From Metridium senile (taxonomy: Eukaryota > Cnidaria > Anthozoa > Actiniaria > Metridiidae): a stretch of 64,000 bases of DNA. Position 1 is the stretch's first letter; each line of letters begins with the position of its first letter. The DNA lies in NCBI GenBank assembly GCA_949775045.1, contig OX459100.1:15245396-15309395 (forward strand), written 5' to 3'. Shown in pieces: positions 5,124 through 17,405 of the stretch. The position numbers and the translations under genes are program-made. The notes beneath the pieces were generated by a model. The model was not told the DNA's origin. It saw only the letters and a program-made list of their open reading frames with translations, and did no database searches.

Positions 5124-5143
5124 TAAGTGAGTGGCTTTACTTA

Positions 5144-5236
5144 CCACTATTTTCATAACTACGCGCCCGTCTGATCAAAGTCTGTTTGTCGAGTTTGAAG
5201 ATTCTGTTCCGTCAATCAAACAAAGTGGGCGGGACT
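5144..5236 (+). repeat. Left 93-bp terminal inverted repeat
   Basis: Complement of 11593-11685 with two mismatches, both in the inner 20 bases. Starts CCACTATTTTCATAAC, preceded by TA at 5142-5143. The outer base next to the TA also matches (T on the left, A on the right). The transposase start codon lies 25 bp inside the repeat's inner edge. Confidence 0.9.
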
Positions 5237-5260
5237 GAGGCGGCACTCAGAATATCCAAG

Positions 5261-7929
5261 ATGGTTGCCAGTTATCCACAAGCCTTACGTTGGAGAGTAC
5301 TTTATTTGTTATATGGAGAAGGGTTAAGAGTGAGTGAAATATCTAGAATTCTGTACGTCAGCGAAACGTTTGTGAAGAAAATCAGACGTATTTACAATGG
5401 AACACATTCTGTAAACTATAATTCTCGTCATGGCAGACGACCAAGGATGCTCGATGGTAGGTAACGTTCATATCTGTATTGTTATGATAATGTAGTTGAT
5501 TTCTTAATTCTTTTCTTTGCAGCAAATGATATTCTGCTCGTAAAATCGATAATAGGCCAATATCCAGAAGCCTACGAGGACGAAATCAGTGAATGGTTAT
5601 GCCATGTTGCTGGAAAACATGTCAGTATTCCCTCAATAAGTCGATACTTGAGACAAATCGGATTTTCGAGGCGAAAGGTTAGTTTCATCGAACCCGGCAT
5701 TGAAGAGCTGATATATCTATAATCATCCTCTATATAAAAAGCGGAATTTATATTAGAGACATAGAACTCTTCTTTTTTTCTCGGCCAAAACGACGAGAAA
5801 GTTCGGCGAAAAGCTTTTCGTAGACAATAATTAAACCGTCCTATAAACGATGAAATCTTCACACAACTGTCAGATTTCGTTTTTTATAATATAACTTAAT
5901 TATCATTTTCGTACCGTCTGAGATGAGTTTTTTTAAATATGAATTAAGCCAACAAATAACATGCATTTACAGGTAGAAGTGCTCCAGCTTATAAGCTTAG
6001 CCCTATTTTATTGCGATAGTGACATCCAGCTGGGAGAGACCCATGAATTGTATACACAAAATAACTCAGATTTTGAAACTATAGTACTTTTAGTTTATCC
6101 CAGCTGCAACACAAATCACTATCTTGTACTAAATAGTACAATTTAAAAAAATACTAGAAAAAGAAGAAGAAAAGAAAAAAGGATTGTGAGCAATTTTGTT
6201 TTACTAAAGTTTCAGATTCTAAACTGAATGCACATATATAAATAATAATAATAATTTATTGATATCATAATTAAAAGTGTTATTTTATATTGTTTATAGC
6301 TTAATGTCATTGCAAGGCAACGTGATGAGAGGAATAGAGCAGAATATCGTCATAGAGTCAGTGCTTTCAATAGGAACCAGTTGCTGTTTATTGATGAATC
6401 TGCCAAAGATTGTCGAACATTTCAGGTAAGGGGCACAAGTATAAATTTATTAACTAGTGAAGTCTGACCTTTATCATACACACTTAACACATTTATTTTT
6501 TTTTGCAATTTTGACATCAAGCATGTAATTTTGGGTTGATTGTTATTATAATTTCCTGAATAGGGAAATAATTATAATTAGTATAAAAATAATTTTTTAT
6601 AAAAAAATGATGTCTTTGTTTTCAGAGGAGATATGCAAGAGACCTTGCTGGAACAGGTCGAATCTCAATAAAAGGCAACTTCACGAGAGGTTCTCGATAT
6701 AGTGTTCTTGCTGCTATCAGCATTGATAGAGTGATAGCTTCTCATGTAATAAATGGGGCATTTAATAGAGAGCAATATGAGTTTGCTTTTCTGCAGTTTA
6801 TCTTACCACACATTGGAAGCTTAGCAAGACACGAGGCAAATTCTGTTATAATAATGGATAACTGCAACATCCACTATTCAGATGTTGTTACCAATGCAGT
6901 GCGAAACAAAGGAGGCATCATAATGTTCCTACCGTAAGTTCACATTCAGTAGAGGCAAATGCAGTATGCAAGCCTTTTTTTAGACAATAATTAGTTTGTT
7001 TTTGTTTCTGTATGGTTCTTGATTTCTTATATAAATGCTGGACAAATCCCTGCCCCTATCTCTAAAGATTATCATTGGACCATACTTGATCATGGTCCTA
7101 AATAGAAACATGTGAAGCACATGTCCAACATAAATTTAATAATAAAATATTTAACAAAAAAAAATGTCTTCCTTATAGGCCTTATTCACATGATTTTAAT
7201 CCAATAGAAGATTGTTTCAACTTCTGTAAGAAATGGCTTCAAAGAAATCAGGAAGTGTGTTATAGATATCCTAAACGGTGCTTTGAAATTGCACTAAGTC
7301 AGGTAAAGTTCTATTAATTTTTAGACAACATAAATACTGTAGAGTGGTTTTCATAAACCTGTGAAACAAAGTGTACTGATTAAAATGTAATAAATTGTAA
7401 TAGTCGTATTTAGACAATAGGATACTAAAGAACCAAAGTGTAATAATACATAATATGAAAACCACTCTAATATTCAATTCAGTAGATAAACATTGTTTCT
7501 GTAATGTTTTTATTTTTGTAAAGTTAAATAGAACAAACAATATTTAATATAACAAACATGCAACATGAACGTGGTAAGTACAATGAAAATTTTATCTAAT
7601 CTGATAATTTTTTCTTCAAATGGCTCAGTAAGTGTTCAAAATCACCATAGGAGTAAATGAGTATCAAAGTTCAGAGGGAGAGTCAAGGGTTATTTTATGT
7701 AATAAATGTGAACTGTTAAACTTGATTTCTCCATGGCAATTGCACATGCCCCCTCCCCCTCACTACCCTGTGTATACCAAGTAACACAAACATATATATT
7801 ATCACATTTTACATTTGTACATTTTACAGATTATTGCTTCTGTCATGCAGTAATTATCAAACACTATTATCTCAACAGGTTAATCAAGCTCAAAGCATAG
7901 GATTTTTTGAAGATTGTGGTTACTTATAA
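5261..7929 (+). CDS. DD34E transposase (IS630/Tc1-mariner superfamily), six exons
   Basis: Exons 5261-5456, 5523-5677, 6300-6425, 6626-6933, 7179-7302 and 7879-7929 have GT-AG introns and join in phase to 318 residues plus stop. Residues 1-60 form a helix-turn-helix DNA-binding region (LRVSEISRILYVSETFV). The DDE_3 catalytic core shows D149 in LLFIDES, D237 in IIMDNCNIH and E272 in FNPIED. D237 and E272 are 34 residues apart, the DD34E spacing of Tc1. The enzyme would cut at the terminal repeats and insert at TA. The start chosen is the first ATG after the left repeat; an upstream open frame exists but has no ATG. About 319 codons is normal for the family, but five introns are unusual because most Tc1/mariner transposases have none. 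All catalytic residues are present. Confidence 0.85.
7342..7467. mobile_element. 126-bp MITE in transposase intron 5
   Basis: Perfect 14-bp terminal inverted repeats (GAGTGGTTTTCATA) with TA on each side. Shares GAGTGGTT with the candidate at 4825-5123. The inner TTTTCATA also resembles bases 7-16 of the large element's own terminal repeat, so they may be relatives. Sits wholly inside the 7303-7878 intron. Confidence 0.75.
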
Positions 7930-8057
7930 TTCCATAAATATTAACTTGATATGGATATGGAAATCATGTAAAAAAAAGAATTACTTGAGTTTGTAAAGTT
8001 TCAAAAATTGTTTTAGACTTACTTTTCAACAAAGAGCTCTGGCAACTTTAGCATAAA

Positions 8058-8204
8058 CAAGGGCGGATCCAGCCAGAAATATAGGGGGTCTTGACTGAAA
8101 TTACTGGCCTGGCATTGATTCTTTTTATTTATTTATTTATTTATTTATTGGCTGAAAAAGGCCGTGGCTTCAGCCTCTTTTGCCCCTCCCTGGATCCACC
8201 CTTG
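8058..8204. mobile_element. 147-bp hAT-like MITE between the two genes
   Basis: Ends CAAGGGCGGATCCAGCC and GGATCCACCCTTG are imperfect inverted repeats, with ATAAA on both sides as a partial target duplication. The interior holds a short (TTTA)n run near 8128-8150. CAAGGG ends with GGATCCA are typical of hAT-derived MITEs. It sits in the spacer between the convergent genes. Confidence 0.55.
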
Positions 8205-8285
8205 ATAAAAAGAATAAAGGAAAAGCAATTCAATAACTATAATAACAATAACAATAACAACTAGATGACAATGTCAGTGTCAATA

Positions 8286-11200
8286 CTATGTAAAACTTGT
8301 ATTCAGGAAACTTGAATTAGAAACTGGCATTTCTCCCTTGACAGCATGAATGACTGCTTCTTTATCACCCATCCCATGTATGCCTAGTCCCTCCAGGATA
8401 CTATCACTTATATGTGGATTAGAGAGACAAACTAACAAGGATCCATTAACCTCTGCTCTCAAAAAAAGACTTTCTAGATGTGACAGATTTGATTTCCTCA
8501 ACAATGTGAGGCAGTCATCTTGTGTGTAGTGCAAAAGTGGTGTCTTGTAAGCTTTATCAGGGCTCTTCGGGGTTGAAGTTAAACAGGATCTGGAGAGCTG
8601 GAGAATGAAATCAAAACAGAATTCACTAATTATAAGACAACGTACACTACTAAAGATTTAAACGTTCCAAAATCTAGTGTATAACTTTGCAAAACCCTTG
8701 CCACATGTTATATATTTACTACAGTCAAATTAGTATTGATGGGATATATCCTGATCAAACATGAAACTACTAATATAGTTTGCTCCATATTACATAGAGT
8801 GCATTTAGTAAAAGCGTGAAACACTAATTACTAAATTGTGCAAAATAGTGCTAGTTGAACAATAGAAAACAATAGAATTAGAATAAAATAGTACAAAATA
8901 GTATTATTAATGTTTCATGCTTTTACTGAATGCACTCTACTGTAAATTTGTCATCTAAAGTATTTTCTGCTATTATATAAAATAGAAGTTTGGCTTTATA
9001 CCCAAATTGTCAAATTGATTGTCAAATTGTTTCTAAGCATTATTGTACTCATGTGTGAAAGTCTTTCCTGTTATGATGCCAGAGTCCCATCCCTTTTCAT
9101 TATTATCATGCAACTAAGATAACAATACCTGCTGTTGAAGCATTGGAGAGTGAGCAGCCATCATGACCATCATTGAATTTTGAAATGTTTCAGCCCTTTT
9201 AGCCTCTATCTCCATCCTCTGTTGATTTTGAATGAACATTGTTTTTAGGAGATCATCAGTTGTCATAGGTGTGACTGAGGGTGTGGCACTTGATTGTGGA
9301 GAAAGGCGTGGTGGTTTTGGTGGTACACCAACTTGATCTATGAAATTCTGCCATATTGGCTCCTCCCCAATGCCACTGGATTTCCCACTAACAATCTCAT
9401 CACTCCAGAGTTTGAGGTGTTTCACTCCGTACCGGTTCAGGGTCCCTTTTTTCTCAAGGTCTCTCACCAAAGAGCAGTGAACTTCATTCCATAAGTCATT
9501 GCCTGTTTTTAATTTTGATGGCTGCTGTACAGACTCAGCTTCACTTGAAAAATCAAGTGTCCTTTTTCTGTTTGAAGAATTAGCAGTAGCTGTAGAAGTA
9601 ACTGAAATCAAAGAGTGACAAACATCAAATTCCTACAAAAAAGATTCCTCTCTTTCATACAATTTTTAAAATATTGTCATAGTTTTACATATTTGTAAAT
9701 AATTTTGTATTTTAGGACGTTGGGGTCTGCAACTATCTATATGGATAAAGCTATTTAGCTGTTTCTGAAATCAGCAGTAAACTTGTGATAGTTGTGAAAT
9801 GGATAATGTAGGTAAATGGTTAAGATAAATAATGAAATGAATTAAAAAAAGTAAAATTTAATGTAACTATATCCAGTAGTCAAAATTGACATGATATTAT
9901 TGTTTGGTTCAAATTTTCAATCCCATTTTCTATTATTTCTTATTTGTGAATTCCAGTCTAGTCAATCGAATCCCATTTTCCAGCCTTGTTAGCTAATTTG
10001 ACGCGTGTGCTTATCACATGAAATCTACAAGCTACAACGAATATGATGAATGAGTCATTTGCAGTAGACAACAAAACAAAACATATCTAGTATTTAAATT
10101 GATGTCTTTTTGTGAAATTGAAGTGTTTATAGCAAAATAAAATGAAATAAAAGGCAGCCCGCGTGGGTCAAATGAATGTACAAAATATAGTGTGTAAAAT
10201 ATGTATGAGCTATACCTGATCCAGTCGTGCTAACAGCAGCACAGGCTATTCGTATTGCTTTGGCATTGTACTCTTCAAAGCAACATCTCAAATCATCGTC
10301 TGTAGTCAGTGCTACTAACTGTTTTTTCCCCTTTCTTATCCAAAAAAGTCCGTTTGATGGAACAAATACCGTTGAGGAACTAGAGTCCATGGTCTTGAGC
10401 ATGCTTTTCAAGCCATCCAAAGTAACCTGTTCAGGTAACCCATGTAAAACAACAGAGGTGTTCGACAGCTTCGCTTCATTGTTTTTCCCTGTTTCAATTT
10501 GAAAGACAAACGCTTCTGTTTCGCATTCGCGACGGCGGGCCGCTACACGAGGTGATCGTCGAGGAGAAATAGCTGAATACTCAATTTCTGTAAAAGTGCA
10601 AAACAAAAACATAAACGAGTCGCAGGATATATAGAGGATATTACATGGGCGCGCGGAGATACGAATATTATCGATAAAACTTGTATCTACAAGCGACCAT
10701 GTAATGTTCTGTTTTTTATATAGATATCGATAAAATGTCAAGAGAAATAAAACTTCATTGACTCGTTATTAAAAACCTTTAAGCAAAACGAATGGCATCT
10801 GAAAACGATATATTCACATGTGAATGTGAAAGATACGAAGTTTTAGACACTAGAGAAATCCTGGTATTTCATCGATATCTATATAATAAATAGAAATCAA
10901 TAGGCAAAGTTAAATAAAAGAGGAAAAGAATGTACGGAAGATTTTAGACCTAAATTAAACCTACCGTCTGTTTTGTAAGACCAATCGACGGCCATCATGA
11001 TTGTCGCCTTTCGTTTCTTCCCAGTACTAGGCCAAGTCAACGGATATTCGTTTAACATGGCTGGAATGTCATGGTCGCTCTGTAAAGCAACGACAGTCTT
11101 ACTATTTCCTTTTTTCTTAAAGTATAGCCTCTTGATTTCTACTTTTTGGTCGTCGCCGTCACACATAACGCGACCTACATAATCGTGTACACAGGCTTTC

Positions 11201-11520
11201 AGAGTTGCGTAAGTCCACCTTTGCGGCAAAATGAATGGTGTAAATTGCTCTCCCATTACTTTCCCTTTATTCGTTTGTAGGTAAAGTGCAACCTCTCTCT
11301 GAAACAAGAATGATTACTTCAATGTTAGTACATGTACTTTCTTCGTCCTCACCATGTGCCGATTGGCATTTATAATTGTCTCGTCACAAACACCGCAATA
11401 GTATATAACTAGCTAAAAACATACTTAGAATAACATTTAACATACCTCATCATTCTCTGCATCCCAGATTTGGGTTTCTTCTATGTCTGGGAGCTGAATG
11501 TTTATTCGTTCCTCCTCCAT
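8286..11520 (-). CDS. Transposon-borne PB1-like/SAM domain protein, five exons
   Basis: Minus-strand exons 11520-11446, 11298-10965, 10587-10216, 9601-9129 and 8597-8286 have GT-AG introns in phases 0,1,1,0 and give 521 residues. The ATG at 11520 follows the right terminal repeat. Residues about 60-130 (exon 2) and 165-250 (exon 3) each carry a strand-rich block ending in a D-D/H-D-L/I motif (LQSDHDIPAML, LTTDDDLRCCF), which resembles PB1-type beta-grasp domains; this assignment is tentative. Exon 4 is a polar linker with a Met/Gln-rich end. Residues 442-507 fit a SAM domain: DDCLTLL, FLRAEVNGSLLVCL, LGIHGMGDKEAVI. Both domain types mediate oligomerisation, so an accessory assembly or host-complex role is plausible. 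No DDE residues are present. It could instead be a captured host gene. Confidence 0.75.
8797..8937. mobile_element. 141-bp MITE in intron 4 of the SAM gene
   Basis: Inverted ends GAGTGCATTTAGTAAAAGC and GCTTTTACTGAATGCACTC are flanked by TA. The core contains CAATAGAAAACAATAGAATT. A MITE of exactly the same length at 52796-52936 has the complementary core and GAGTAC ends, so the two belong to one family. The insertion lies between exons 4 and 5. Confidence 0.75.
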
Positions 11521-11592
11521 TTTCTTACAGTACGGTAACCTAAATTTTTTTCCCGCTCGTCCTACAAAAGCACGTTCACTCGCACCAGTACA

Positions 11593-11685
11593 AGTCCCGC
11601 CCACCTTGTTTCATTGACGGAACAGAATCTTCAAACTCGACAAACAGACTTTGATCAGACGGGCGCGTAGTTATGAAAATAGTGG
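11593..11685 (-). repeat. Right 93-bp terminal inverted repeat
   Basis: Inverted partner of 5144-5236 with two mismatches. Ends ...GAAAATAGTGG followed by TA at 11686-11687. The start codon of the SAM-domain gene lies 73 bp inside it. Confidence 0.9.
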
Positions 11686-12096
11686 TAACCCGTAAAACAA
11701 ATCTAATTGTCAGATAGATACAAAAGAAAACAATAGAAATAGGTATAATAGGGGTGTGTTTTCACTAGAATATTTAAGCTAGCTTAAGATTGCAAAAAAA
11801 GGAAATACAATGAAAACAGCCGAGTAAAGCGTAAATTAGCTTAAAATTACCAAGTGTTTTCACAAGTAAAAGTGACACTGAAACACCGGAAATTGAGACG
11901 ATTTTAAACTATCTCGATACATGGTTTAACTTTGCCAAGTAAACACACCAGCAAATCAGAGCGATTATTGGACCAATCTTCTTGACAGACGCTTGTCACA
12001 TCGACCATGTTTCGTATCTTGAAATCACCATGACAGATCCTTGAAACAATATTCCTTCTACAAGTAATACTTCTCTAAATTACAGGTAATCATTGT

Positions 12097-12431: not shown

Positions 12432-13289
12432 TTGCTCCGTAAATCTTTTTTTCTTTTTACTGTATTCCTCATCAAAACTCGAAACATGACTAACGTACTG
12501 ACCAAAGAAAACTTCCTTAAGTTCTGGCAAGATGAATTGGTGCCAAAAATGAAAGAAATTATTCAAGTTGAAGTGGCCGTCCTAAACCACAAGATTGCGA
12601 AAGTCAATCAAACAATGAGCAAAGTTGAAGAATCCCAATCCTTCCTCTCAAACAAGTACGACAGTATAGCTGCTACTATTCAAACTACCAGAAAAGAAGT
12701 CAGCAAATTAAGTACGGACTTAAAAGAGGTGGACAAGGAGATCGAAGGCATCAAACAAGAAATATATAATATCAACATAGACGTTGATGATGCTCAACAA
12801 TACCTCCGTAGGGATTGCCTTGAAATAATTGGAATACCAATAACACAAGGAGAAAGTACGAATAAAATCGTTCAAGATGTCTCCAAGATGATCGGAGTTA
12901 ACGTAGACAACAAGGACATCTCGACATCACATAGATTGCCGGACACAAAAAAAGTAAAAAATCGCATCATTGTGAAATTTACCTCGCGAGATAAGAGAGA
13001 AGAGTTTTACAAAAAGAAAACGAATTTGCATAACAAACGGTCAAGCACAATACCTACTAATGGCCCTGGAATGCAAGGACGCGATCGCATCCATATTAAT
13101 GAGTCCCTCACTGCCTACAGAAAACGTTTGTTTTCTAAAGTGAATGAATTCAAGAAGACACAGAAATTCAAGTACCTATGGACCAACGGAGGGAAGATCT
13201 TTCTAAGAGAACATGAACACGCAAATAGCCATATATTTACTACTTTTGAAAGATTTGGTGAATTTGAAGACATGTTCTTCAACAGATAA
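12432..13289 (+). CDS. LINE ORF1 protein (coiled coil plus RNA-binding)
   Basis: First ORF of the LINE. The ATG at 12486 (MTNVLTKENFLKFW) is the likelier start than the frame opening at 12432. Residues about 50-130 form a heptad-rich coiled coil (KVEESQ, LSTDLKEVDKEIEGIKQEI). This is followed by an RRM-like core (RDCLEIIGIP, NRIIVKFTSRDKREEF) and a basic C-terminal domain (RIHINESLTAYRKRLF), the order seen in L1-type ORF1 proteins that coat element RNA. No stop or frameshift; ORF2 follows after 53 bp. Confidence 0.85.
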   Translation: MLRKSFFLFTVFLIKTRNMTNVLTKENFLKFWQDELVPKMKEIIQVEVAVLNHKIAKVNQTMSKVEESQSFLSNKYDSIAATIQTTRKEVSKLSTDLKEVDKEIEGIKQEIYNINIDVDDAQQYLRRDCLEIIGIPITQGESTNKIVQDVSKMIGVNVDNKDISTSHRLPDTKKVKNRIIVKFTSRDKREEFYKKKTNLHNKRSSTIPTNGPGMQGRDRIHINESLTAYRKRLFSKVNEFKKTQKFKYLWTNGGKIFLREHEHANSHIFTTFERFGEFEDMFFNR

Positions 13290-13342
13290 GTAATAAGTAG
13301 TATTCTTAGTTAGTAAATAATTTACCTCTTATGAATTAAGAA

Positions 13343-16300
13343 ATGGATCCCACAATTGATCCTATAAATATAACTGATGATTCATTATTATCTAATTTAA
13401 ATGATTTGTATGATGTCCTACCTAACCCAGACCGGTTTGATGATGCGGATTCGGACCATATGCTTATCAACTCAAGCTCTGATTACTGTTCAATTGGACA
13501 TCTAAATAGGTTATTTGACCAGTATTCTAGGATTGAAAACTTTTCTCTTATTCACATGAATATTAGAAGCTTGCAGAAAAACTTCTCTCGATTAAATGAT
13601 ATACTTTTTTCAATATCGAAACCTGTTGATATTATTGCTATCACTGAGACAAAACTCAACTCCAACTCTGTGGATAATATTAATCTTGAAAACTACAATT
13701 TTTTCCACTGCGATTCGCTAACGAATGCTGGTGGAGCTGCTATATATGTGAATTCTAAATTTAGATCCATATTTAGACCTGATATTAAATTCAATATAGA
13801 ATCGGTTGAGTCATGCTGGATAGAAATAGAAACAATTAAAAATAAACCTAATATAATCATTGGCTGTGTTTACAAACATCCAAAGGCTATTATCAACGAA
13901 TTCGCAAAAGAATTTGAAAGAATAATAGATGATCTTAAGGGCTTTCAGATTTACATTCTTGGAGACGTAAATATTAATTTCTTAAATTATAATGAAGATA
14001 CTGCCACTGAAGAATATCTCAATATGCTATATAGTAACAATATGTTTCCACTTATAACAAAACCAACAAGAATAACTTATCATACAGCCACTTTAATTGA
14101 TCATATATATACAAATACTACGCCAGCTAATATAATTAGTAAAATAATTACTGCAGATATATCAGATCATTTACCGATTTTCTGCTTATCAACTGCACAG
14201 ATAACCAGAGCTGAAAACAAAATATATTACCGCGACTTTAAAAATTTCAATGAAAACTTATATGTAAATGATATCAATAATACAAACTGGAAACAGCTTA
14301 TTACATCTGATTTATCATTTGATGAACAGGTAAATGATACTATTCATTGTCTGCAATCTATAATTGATAAACATGCTCCTCTAAAAGCTGCATCTAGAGC
14401 TAAGGCAAAAATACTATCTAAACCTTGGTTAACAGATGGCTTACTGAAATCTATAAAAAACAAACAAAAAATGTATCGCACACATTTCTTATCAAAATTG
14501 CCTGATCGTGTCATGCACTACCGGAACTACGTTAAACTTTTGAACGGTCTTAAAACTAAGGCTAAAAATGAGTACTATAATAAATATTTTCAAAAATACA
14601 AAAACAATCTTAAAAAAACGTGGAAACTTGTTGGAACACTAATCAAAAGAAAATCAAAAGGGGAGATAGTACCAACTGCGATCATCCGTGACAATATAAC
14701 ATATAAAAGTGAAAAAGACATAGCTGACCAACTTAACCAACACTTCGTTGATGTAGGTCCCTCCCTTAGTAATAATATTAACGCGTCTAACATAGATCCT
14801 GTATCTTACATTAAAAATTCTCCTTCATCTAGTTTTGTTTTTACTCCTGTAACTGAAAAGGAAGTTTGTGAAAAATTCTCTTTACTGGATGTTCGCAAAT
14901 CATCGTTGGACATACCGAATAAAATGATTAAAATAGCCTGTGAACCTTTGTCAAAAATATTCACGCCTATTTTTAATCAATCAATCTATCAAGGTGTAGT
15001 ACCTGATATTTTGAAAGTCTCAAAGATCACTCCGATCTACAAAAGTGGAGTGATGACTGACGCAAATAATTATAGGCCTATTTCTACCCTATCACCATTC
15101 AGTAAAATTCTGGAACGGTTAGTTTATGATCAATTAATGTCCTTCATTAATAAGAATGATATTTTATATAAATATCAATTTGGGTTTAGAAAAGGTTTCT
15201 CAACTGAACATGCTATTTTGGAACTAACTGATTACCTAAGAACTACCATTGATAACAAACAGTACACTTGCGGAATTTTCCTCGACTTTTCAAAAGCGTT
15301 CGACACAGTTAATCATAACATACTCTTAAAAAAATTAGAAAAATATGGTATACGAGGACTCCCATTGCAATGGTTTTATAGCTATTTATCTAATAGAGCT
15401 CAGTTCGTACAAATTGGCAACATAAAGTCAAAAAAACTAATCATGAATTCCGGTGTTCCACAAGGGTCTACACTTGGTCCCCTATTATTTCTTATCTATA
15501 TAAATGATCTTGCCGACTCTTCAAATATCCTTAAATTCAGAATCTTCGCAGATGATACAAATATCTTTTATTCTTCCAAAAATCTGAATGAACTTCAAAA
15601 TATAATGAATAATGAACTCCCTAAGGTATATCAATATTGCAATGTAAACAAATTGTCAATTAACTTTGCTAAAACTAACTATATGATAATAACAACTACG
15701 CAAAGGATAAATGCACAAATCAACATTCCTAATATTACACAAAAATGTTGTATTAAATACCTTGGTGTATATATTGATAAACACTTAAATTGGAAAAATC
15801 ATTTATCATATATTAGTAATAAAATTGCAAAAAATATTGGGATTCTATATAGACTGAGAATATATTTAAGCTTAAAAATGCTAACTAGCTTTTATTACTC
15901 CTTAATCTATCCCTATATTAACTATGGAATTATGAGTTGGGGATGTACCTATAAAACCACCATTGATAAGCTATCTTCGCAACTAAGGAAATGTGTCAGA
16001 TGTATTTTTTTCCTTAATAGACGCAATGATCCGTGTCTGTATTTCAAACTACTGGGCATCCTACAGATCGAAAATATATTTAAACTTAGAGTGGTTCTAT
16101 TTACTCATCAGATACTAAGCAAGTCCATAAAATCATGTGATATATTCGATGATTGTGTAATACCAGTCTCAGCTATTCACCAATATAATACAAGATATTC
16201 ATCCAAAAATAATCTATATAGGCAACGAGTACGCACAAACTATGGTAAATTTACCTACAAATTTACTAGTTCTAAGGTCTGGGAAACAGTACCAAACTCA

Positions 16301-16369
16301 CTGAAATGCCTTCCTTATGCATCTCTAAAACGGATGTATAAAGAGCATCTAATTATGAACAATCAATAA
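13343..16369 (+). CDS. LINE ORF2: endonuclease and reverse transcriptase
   Basis: An intact 1008-residue frame. Residues about 68-285 are an apurinic-type endonuclease: HMNIRSLQKN, ITETKLNS, LGDVNINF and the final SDHLPIF. Residues about 540-800 are reverse transcriptase: ANNYRPIS, FLDFSKAFDTVNH, SGVPQGSTLGP and the catalytic FADDTN near residue 735. The C-terminus (WETVPNSLKCLP) is the thumb-end motif of CR1/L2/Jockey-group LINEs. The domain order endonuclease then RT excludes R2-type elements. It would nick the target and copy its RNA in place. Together with ORF1, the frame suggests a recently active copy. Confidence 0.9.
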   Translation: MDPTIDPINITDDSLLSNLNDLYDVLPNPDRFDDADSDHMLINSSSDYCSIGHLNRLFDQYSRIENFSLIHMNIRSLQKNFSRLNDILFSISKPVDIIAITETKLNSNSVDNINLENYNFFHCDSLTNAGGAAIYVNSKFRSIFRPDIKFNIESVESCWIEIETIKNKPNIIIGCVYKHPKAIINEFAKEFERIIDDLKGFQIYILGDVNINFLNYNEDTATEEYLNMLYSNNMFPLITKPTRITYHTATLIDHIYTNTTPANIISKIITADISDHLPIFCLSTAQITRAENKIYYRDFKNFNENLYVNDINNTNWKQLITSDLSFDEQVNDTIHCLQSIIDKHAPLKAASRAKAKILSKPWLTDGLLKSIKNKQKMYRTHFLSKLPDRVMHYRNYVKLLNGLKTKAKNEYYNKYFQKYKNNLKKTWKLVGTLIKRKSKGEIVPTAIIRDNITYKSEKDIADQLNQHFVDVGPSLSNNINASNIDPVSYIKNSPSSSFVFTPVTEKEVCEKFSLLDVRKSSLDIPNKMIKIACEPLSKIFTPIFNQSIYQGVVPDILKVSKITPIYKSGVMTDANNYRPISTLSPFSKILERLVYDQLMSFINKNDILYKYQFGFRKGFSTEHAILELTDYLRTTIDNKQYTCGIFLDFSKAFDTVNHNILLKKLEKYGIRGLPLQWFYSYLSNRAQFVQIGNIKSKKLIMNSGVPQGSTLGPLLFLIYINDLADSSNILKFRIFADDTNIFYSSKNLNELQNIMNNELPKVYQYCNVNKLSINFAKTNYMIITTTQRINAQINIPNITQKCCIKYLGVYIDKHLNWKNHLSYISNKIAKNIGILYRLRIYLSLKMLTSFYYSLIYPYINYGIMSWGCTYKTTIDKLSSQLRKCVRCIFFLNRRNDPCLYFKLLGILQIENIFKLRVVLFTHQILSKSIKSCDIFDDCVIPVSAIHQYNTRYSSKNNLYRQRVRTNYGKFTYKFTSSKVWETVPNSLKCLPYASLKRMYKEHLIMNNQ

Positions 16370-16678: not shown

Positions 16679-17405
16679 GAATGGGCCACAGTTCGCATCG
16701 GCAGAGTTTAGTGTGTTTGCCAAATCTTGGATGTTTGAACACAAGACATCATCCCCCAGATATGCGCAGTCAAATGGGAAAGAGGAAAATACTCTCCAGA
16801 CAGTAAAGAGGCTATTTAAGAAGTGCAAGACACCCGGGGGATCAGAATTCCAAGCACTCCTCGACTGGCGGAATACCCTGACTGCTGGAATTGGGACTAG
16901 CCCGGCTCAACGCCTTTTCGGGCGCAGATGCAAGACACTTCTCCCTGTGGCAGGTTCCCTACAACAGCCTAGCTACCCCACTGAAGAGGACACCAGGAAG
17001 TTGATAGGTGCCAAGCAACGCCAGAAGTTCTACTACGACAAGCACAGCAAGCCCTTGGAGCCCATTGCTGTCGGTGAAACTGTGCGGATGAAGCTACCAG
17101 GACAAGACACGTGGACACCTGGCATGTGTTTGGGCCAAGCAGGACCCAGGAGTCACTACGTCAAGACAAAGGGTACCACCTATCGACGCAACCGACGACA
17201 GTTGATCAACACAGGAGAATCAAACATTTTTCCGAATTTCGACTTCGGCTTTCTTGGAGAGGCCTCACAAATAGAAGAGCCACCAGAGGAGCCACCAGAA
17301 AAAAGTAAAAATCAAGATTTGCTAGCCCAAACATGGAGAATCTTGACGAACTACTTGATGGTGCCAAGACAAAGTCAACAAAGTACTCAACAAGTTTCGC
17401 AGTAA
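16679..17405 (+). pseudogene. Ty3/gypsy-type integrase remnant
   Basis: Reads as the second half of a retroviral-type integrase core: NGPQFASAEFSVFAKSWMFE, RYAQSNGKEENTLQTVKRLF, then TSPAQRLFGRRCKTLLP and a C-terminal domain with GETVRMKLPG. The first catalytic Asp and the whole of gag, protease and RT are missing; the left side is cut by the LINE. The remaining frame is open to 17405 and ends in a Gln/Pro-rich tail. No LTR was recognised. Confidence 0.75.

What the first reader, a model, noticed from the sequence alone, without database searches (positions are those of the whole stretch)
5144..11685. Tc1-like transposon with a spliced transposase and a second PB1-like/SAM gene
Seen: 93-bp inverted ends with two mismatches, TA on both sides, and two convergent multi-exon genes that splice to open frames. 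Known: typical Tc1/mariner elements are 1-2.5 kb and encode one intronless transposase. Inference: the 521-residue companion, with two PB1-like segments and a clear SAM domain, is an accessory protein that may assemble transposition complexes or tether them to host SAM/PB1 proteins. The near-identical ends and intact catalytic triad suggest recent mobility. This is the best candidate for an undescribed system here.
Basis: partly seen in the sequence, partly recalled or inferred. Interest (0 to 1): 0.88.

Follow-up and report, generated by a model that had tools for sequence, protein, structure and literature searches.

The report
Two-gene Tc1-like transposon in sea anemones
A jumping gene of the Tc1 kind in a sea-anemone-like animal carries, besides its transposase, a second gene for a SAM/PB1 scaffold-like protein, and because the same gene pair recurs in other such jumping genes of this genome and in other cnidarians, the second gene looks like a lasting working part of the element rather than an accident.

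The parts
5142..5143 (.). TA at the left boundary (within TTA)
   Evidence: sequence; 29 of 29 examined ends of this and related elements have TTA outside the tip
5144..5236 (+). left terminal inverted repeat, 93 bp
5261..5456 (+). transposase exon 1 (start ATG 5261)
5523..5677 (+). transposase exon 2
6300..6425 (+). transposase exon 3 (first catalytic D)
6626..6933 (+). transposase exon 4 (second catalytic D)
7179..7302 (+). transposase exon 5 (catalytic E)
7879..7930 (+). transposase exon 6 and stop
8286..8597 (-). companion exon 5: SAM domain and stop
   Evidence: fold of the relative P0003
9129..9601 (-). companion exon 4: conserved central helical region and predicted long helix; no relative found by sequence
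10216..10587 (-). companion exon 3: basic RRSPR motif and second PB1-like domain
10965..11298 (-). companion exon 2: first PB1-like domain
11446..11520 (-). companion exon 1 (start ATG at 11520)
   Evidence: exon 1 also present in L012
11593..11685 (-). right terminal inverted repeat, 93 bp, 2 mismatches to the left
11686..11687 (.). TA at the right boundary (within TAA)
   Evidence: sequence

Best explanation
5144-11685 is a member of a lineage of two-gene Tc1/IS630-like cut-and-paste transposons found in anthozoan cnidarians. Shown: the transposase (PAX-like helix-turn-helix plus DD34E domain) and the convergent companion (PB1-like, PB1-like, central helical region, SAM) have descended together, between inverted ends, through several old families, and both show the substitution pattern of constrained genes. 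Inferred: the transposase binds the ends, cuts, and inserts at TA, preferring TTAA; the companion self-assembles through its SAM and PB1 domains into oligomers that bind the transposase or the ends, helping to pair the two ends of a 6.5-7.5 kb element and making transposition efficient.
Against: No direct evidence that the companion touches the transposase, the ends or DNA, that it polymerises, or that it is nuclear. In ciliate TBE elements, accessory proteins did not change DNA-binding profiles in E. coli (PMC12242761, passages). Miniature elements with the same tips show only that the ends suffice in cis. Most Tc1/mariner elements need no second protein. Foldseek E-values are modest (best SAM 2.9e-3, best PB1 4.5e-3), and the top hits of the P0001 model are USP7 ubiquitin-like domains, not PB1 chains; PB1 as against a general ubiquitin-like fold rests on the PB1 hits and weak sequence scores. 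Of the elements read, several have damaged genes: L011 has shifted frames in both, the F2 copy on C2 seems to have lost part of transposase exon 4, the F3 model lacks the first catalytic motif.
Confidence: 0.55

Rival explanations
1. The companion is an anti-silencing or chromatin factor: its Polyhomeotic/Scm-like SAM and PB1 domains cap or displace host repressive polymers so that the element is expressed, and it plays no part in the transposition chemistry.
For: Closest folds of the SAM include Polycomb-group SAMs; long co-inheritance and constraint fit this equally well; plant elements with anti-silencing proteins are a recalled precedent.
Against: SAM fold similarity does not name partners; no host target was looked for or found; PB1 domains are not typical of Polycomb proteins (recalled).
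Confidence: 0.3
2. The companion is a transposase-level regulator, for example limiting copy number by sequestering transposase in inactive oligomers.
For: Scaffold-like domain set with no enzyme family among the meaningful Pfam hits; few copies of family F1 found.
Against: F2 has amplified recently with an open companion frame; a self-limiting gene is hard to keep by selection on the element alone (inference).
Confidence: 0.1
3. Chance capture of a host gene by one element (passenger).
For: SAM and PB1 are common host domains; 9 of 22 companion clusters have no transposase match within 10 kb; three of the nine were read: L012 is a piece of an F1 end, L072 has a transposase piece beside it, L071 has none.
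Against: Same pair in six further families and two other genera, congruent trees, conserved introns.
Confidence: 0.03
4. Host gene cluster or domesticated pair rather than a mobile element.
For: Both genes keep open frames with introns in the window.
Against: Near-perfect inverted ends, TA at both sides, five near-identical F2 copies at different sites, miniature relatives with the same 26-bp tip at about ten sites.
Confidence: 0.02

Closest known systems
Typical Tc1-like elements (Tc1/mariner superfamily, DD34E)
   Same: DD34E triad, DDE_3 domain, paired-type helix-turn-helix, inverted ends, TA at the junctions
   Different: [quoted passage not shown]
Ciliate TBE elements (Tc1/mariner)
   Same: DD34E transposase with conserved extra genes under purifying selection (PMC7325037 section 8; PMC12242761 passages)
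   [quoted passage not shown] telomere-like tips; ciliates only
Ciliate Tec elements
   Same: several ORFs, one in complement (PMC7325037 section 8)
   Different: about 700-bp ends and a site-specific recombinase; here 93-bp ends and no recombinase hit
Bacterial IS630 family
   Same: transposase scores above the NCBIfam IS630 cut-off (121 bits, cut-off 100)
   Different: eukaryotic introns, 93-bp ends, second gene
KolobokP (two-protein animal transposon)
   Same: animal DNA transposon with a DDE transposase plus a second conserved protein (PMC9587614 abstract)
   Different: different superfamily, long terminal direct repeats, second protein is a His-Me finger nuclease

Membership tests
Tc1/mariner (IS630-Tc1-mariner) | DDE_3/IS630-type transposase with DD34E/D triad | tested here: met
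   DDE_3 E 1.3e-22, IS630 E 5.8e-35, D149, D237, 34 residues, E272
Tc1/mariner (IS630-Tc1-mariner) | N-terminal paired-type helix-turn-helix DNA-binding part | tested here: met
   Pfam PAX 24.6 bits, cut-off 22; profile matches PAX6 E 2.5e-10 and the Sleeping Beauty PAI subdomain E 3.4e-4
Tc1/mariner (IS630-Tc1-mariner) | terminal inverted repeats | tested here: met
   also F2, F3, F4
Tc1/mariner (IS630-Tc1-mariner) | TA target-site duplication | tested here: inconclusive
   TA present at 29 of 29 ends seen, always as TTA, but no empty site could be examined, so TA duplicated in TTAA cannot be told from TTA being part of the end
Tc1/mariner (IS630-Tc1-mariner) | usual, not strictly defining: one intronless gene, 1-2.5 kb | tested here: not met
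   two spliced genes in 6.5 kb
Ciliate TBE | telomere-repeat tips and zinc-finger/kinase companion | tested here: not met
   tip reads CCACTATTTTC; no zinc-finger or kinase among the Pfam hits of the companion or of 15 relatives
Ciliate Tec | about 700-bp ends and site-specific recombinase | tested here: not met
   93-bp ends; no recombinase among Pfam hits of either protein
piggyBac (considered because of TTAA) | full TTAA duplicated at both ends and piggyBac transposase | tested here: not met
   TTA on one side and TAA on the other, not TTAA twice; transposase is DDE_3/IS630
SAM domain | five-helix SAM fold | tested here: met
PB1 domain | ubiquitin-like beta-grasp with acidic OPCA or basic face | tested here: inconclusive
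   fold matches PB1 chains but USP7 ubiquitin-like domains rank higher for P0001; sequence score below the Pfam cut-off; OPCA and basic-face residues not tested

The most novel reading that the evidence does not exclude
An anthozoan lineage of two-component Tc1-like transposons in which a dedicated SAM/PB1 protein forms a polymeric scaffold around transposase and ends (a transposon-encoded assembly or condensate factor): the first accessory protein for animal Tc1/mariner elements and a new class of accessory protein altogether.
Probability: 0.4. Interest if true: 0.85.

Novelty: new variant of a known kind. Interest (0 to 1): 0.75.

Why it matters
Tc1/mariner elements are the textbook one-gene transposons. 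A companion gene that has co-diverged with the transposase down to 28-42% identity between families, and that all five copies of a very recently amplified family carry, says that one lineage came to depend on, or profit from, a scaffold-type protein. It makes a question directly testable: what can a polymer-forming protein add to DDE transposition (end pairing, chromatin access, silencing escape)? The F2 copies and the miniature elements offer ready substrates for such a test, and a two-component system could matter as a genetic tool.

Tried and rejected
Chance capture: rejected. piggyBac: rejected. A known family for the conserved central region of the companion: Pfam and a PDB sequence profile gave nothing for it; it was not folded on its own, so this is no evidence of a new fold. 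Viral contigs: not searched, because the alignment had no stretch conserved enough. Genome-wide search with the F2 end: not answered. Empty-site search with joined flanks of 11 insertion sites: not answered in six tries. Literature: nine answered searches listed no paper recognisable as reporting a Tc1/mariner element with a SAM or PB1 gene; some searches listed only 15 of 19, 20 of 32 and 10 of 15 hits. The library lacks most subscription papers, and whether Repbase holds such elements could not be checked, so the absence is weak evidence.

Results against or limiting my reading. The clade threshold (42% identity) was set by me, one search scored only 125 of 448 candidates, and companions of distant transposases could be too diverged to be found, so 0 of 77 is weaker than it looks. 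9 of 22 companion clusters had no transposase match; three were read (L012, L071, L072). Of 18 companion hits only 2 share a contig length with one of the 20 transposase hits. In one search I cut 150 residues off the F5 companion (its first exons lie about 7.4 kb away, outside the stretch held) and trimmed the F6 sequences; F7 was not used; two nodes in each tree have modest support (0.655-0.865). In one search the F5 companion was not trimmed, so its comparisons include unrelated residues; F6 and F7 were not in it; my aligner prefers open paths, so open frames there are not an independent test; synonymous change is saturated. An error of mine was caught on rechecking: one search ignored bases present only in L011 and so showed its frames as open; one search shows a 4-base insertion in transposase exon 1 and a 1-base insertion in companion exon 4, so both are shifted. 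The F2 copy on C2 gives only a partial transposase exon 4 match and its gene spacing is 306 bases shorter.

Full report
What is there. The window lies at G000:C6:15245396-15309395 of a 389-Mb assembly; its transposase is 89% identical to an Actinia tenebrosa protein, so a sea-anemone-like host is likely (inference). Window 5144-11685 is bounded by 93-bp inverted repeats with two mismatches, each with TA outside. Between them are two convergent genes. On the plus strand, six exons give a 319-aa transposase with a PAX-like helix-turn-helix, a DDE_3 domain and a DD34E triad. On the minus strand, five exons give a 521-aa companion. My spliced aligner gave both gene models back exactly.

Other copies of this family (F1). 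A second copy at C7:19958600- (L011) matches 5.1 kb of the element at 98.4%, with the left end, the transposase exons and companion exons 4 and 5; its transposase exon 1 carries a 4-base and its companion exon 4 a 1-base insertion, so both frames are shifted; it breaks off shortly before a run of N. A third locus (L012) holds 247 bp of the right end including companion exon 1. Six further loci found with the end are miniature elements of about 230 bp (one lacking one tip) whose first 26 bp are identical to the element's tip; searching with one of them lists ten long matches at 90-100% identity.

Sister families. The companion protein has 50 exon-level matches in the genome, in 22 clusters. Five loci on C2, C3 (two), C4 and C6 form family F2. 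One was read in full (L050): about 7.2 kb, arms identical over 63 bases, transposase plus-strand and companion minus-strand in the same convergent order. The five copies differ by 0-2 bases in 3444 (10 pairwise comparisons) and sit at five different sites; the C2 copy seems to have lost part of transposase exon 4. Further pairs are F3 (L051; first catalytic motif missing in my model), F4 (L060), F5 (L061; first companion exons about 7.4 kb away), F6 (L063, L064; broken transposase, companion exons 3-4 recovered at most) and F7 (L073; pieces of both). Inverted ends around both genes were found for F3 (30 bp, 97%) and F4 (88 bp, 98%); none were found for F5-F7 in the stretches held. Intron positions are shared between families.

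Tests of co-inheritance. (a) Of 95 transposase clusters listed, 18 belong to the related clade (identity 42% or more, a threshold I set); 13 of these have a companion match within 10 kb; of the other 77 none has (Fisher p 2.5e-12; diverged companions could be missed, and one search scored 125 of 448 candidates). (b) For eight transposase/companion pairs (F1-F6, Oculina, Exaiptasia) the FastTree topologies are the same, some nodes with modest support, and protein distances correlate with r 0.87, the best of all 40,320 permutations; without F6, r 0.90 (1 of 5,040); without F6 and F3, r 0.93 (1 of 720). (c) Both genes show fewer changes at codon positions 1 and 2 than at 3, and pN well below a saturated pS, in 10 of 10 comparisons among F1-F5. 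Together these speak strongly against a one-off capture.

Mechanism. Shown: a mobile lineage with inverted ends, two constrained genes, recent spread of F2 with both genes. Inferred: cut-and-paste transposition with insertion at TA, probably within TTAA, since 29 of 29 ends examined (F1 window 2, L011 1, L012 1, F2 10, F3 2, F4 2, miniature elements 11) read TTA outside the tip. Without an empty site, TTA as part of the end is not excluded. The companion most likely self-assembles through SAM and PB1 domains and acts on transposase, ends or chromatin; assembly of the transposition complex is my preferred reading (0.55), escape from silencing the main rival (0.3).

Known context. PMC7325037 (section 8 read) describes TBE and Tec elements of ciliates as Tc1/mariner with extra ORFs. 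PMC12242761 (passages) calls accessory proteins surprising for Tc1/mariner elements and reports that TBE accessory proteins did not change DNA-binding profiles in E. coli. PMC12477816 (passages) and PMC9587614 (abstract) describe accessory genes in other superfamilies. PMC2872659 (passages) describes coral miniature elements with TTAA duplications attributed to piggyBac, a different case. Nine answered searches (three of them listing only part of their hits) listed no paper recognisable as reporting this pair.

Verdict. Observation confirmed, interpretation supported and extended: not a single odd element but an old two-gene lineage. New variant of a known kind.

Noticed in passing
window 12432-16369, +: Open frames of 285 aa (12432-13289) and 1008 aa (13343-16369) just right of the element that look like ORF1 and endonuclease/reverse-transcriptase ORF2 of a non-LTR retrotransposon (by eye; no domain search).
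   Followed up: no
window 16713-17405, +: 230-aa frame resembling the tail of a retroelement integrase/polyprotein (by eye).
   Followed up: no
L050:4497-4807 (family F2): A 311-bp near-palindrome (152-nt arms, 91%) lies between the two F2 genes; the matching stretch is also in the other four copies.
   Followed up: partly
G000:C2:19013508-19016339 (F2 copy on C2): Gene spacing is 306 bases shorter than in the C6 copy and only residues 216-263 of transposase exon 4 match: an internal loss in one otherwise near-identical copy, perhaps the first step to a non-autonomous form.
   Followed up: partly
L013-L018 and one search places: About 230-bp miniature elements with the same 26-bp tip as the window element, nearly identical at several sites, probably moved by this transposase or a close sister.
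   Followed up: partly
C16:2809099, C12:5798058, C10:12816993, C9:9324860, C9:6634726, C7:11664154, C5:7237301, C5:1525589: Eight places share only about the first 63 bases of the miniature element at 86%, possibly a second miniature family with related ends.
   Followed up: no
P0002 (Exaiptasia AIPGENE11745): Annotated protein joins a foreign front part (weak GIY-YIG hit, E 0.087) to the companion; probably a gene-model fusion across neighbouring mobile elements.
   Followed up: no
L011:5717-9901 and L019:1-916: About 5-kb run of N close behind the broken end of the second F1 copy (gap or withheld stretch), so its missing right part could not be checked.
   Followed up: partly
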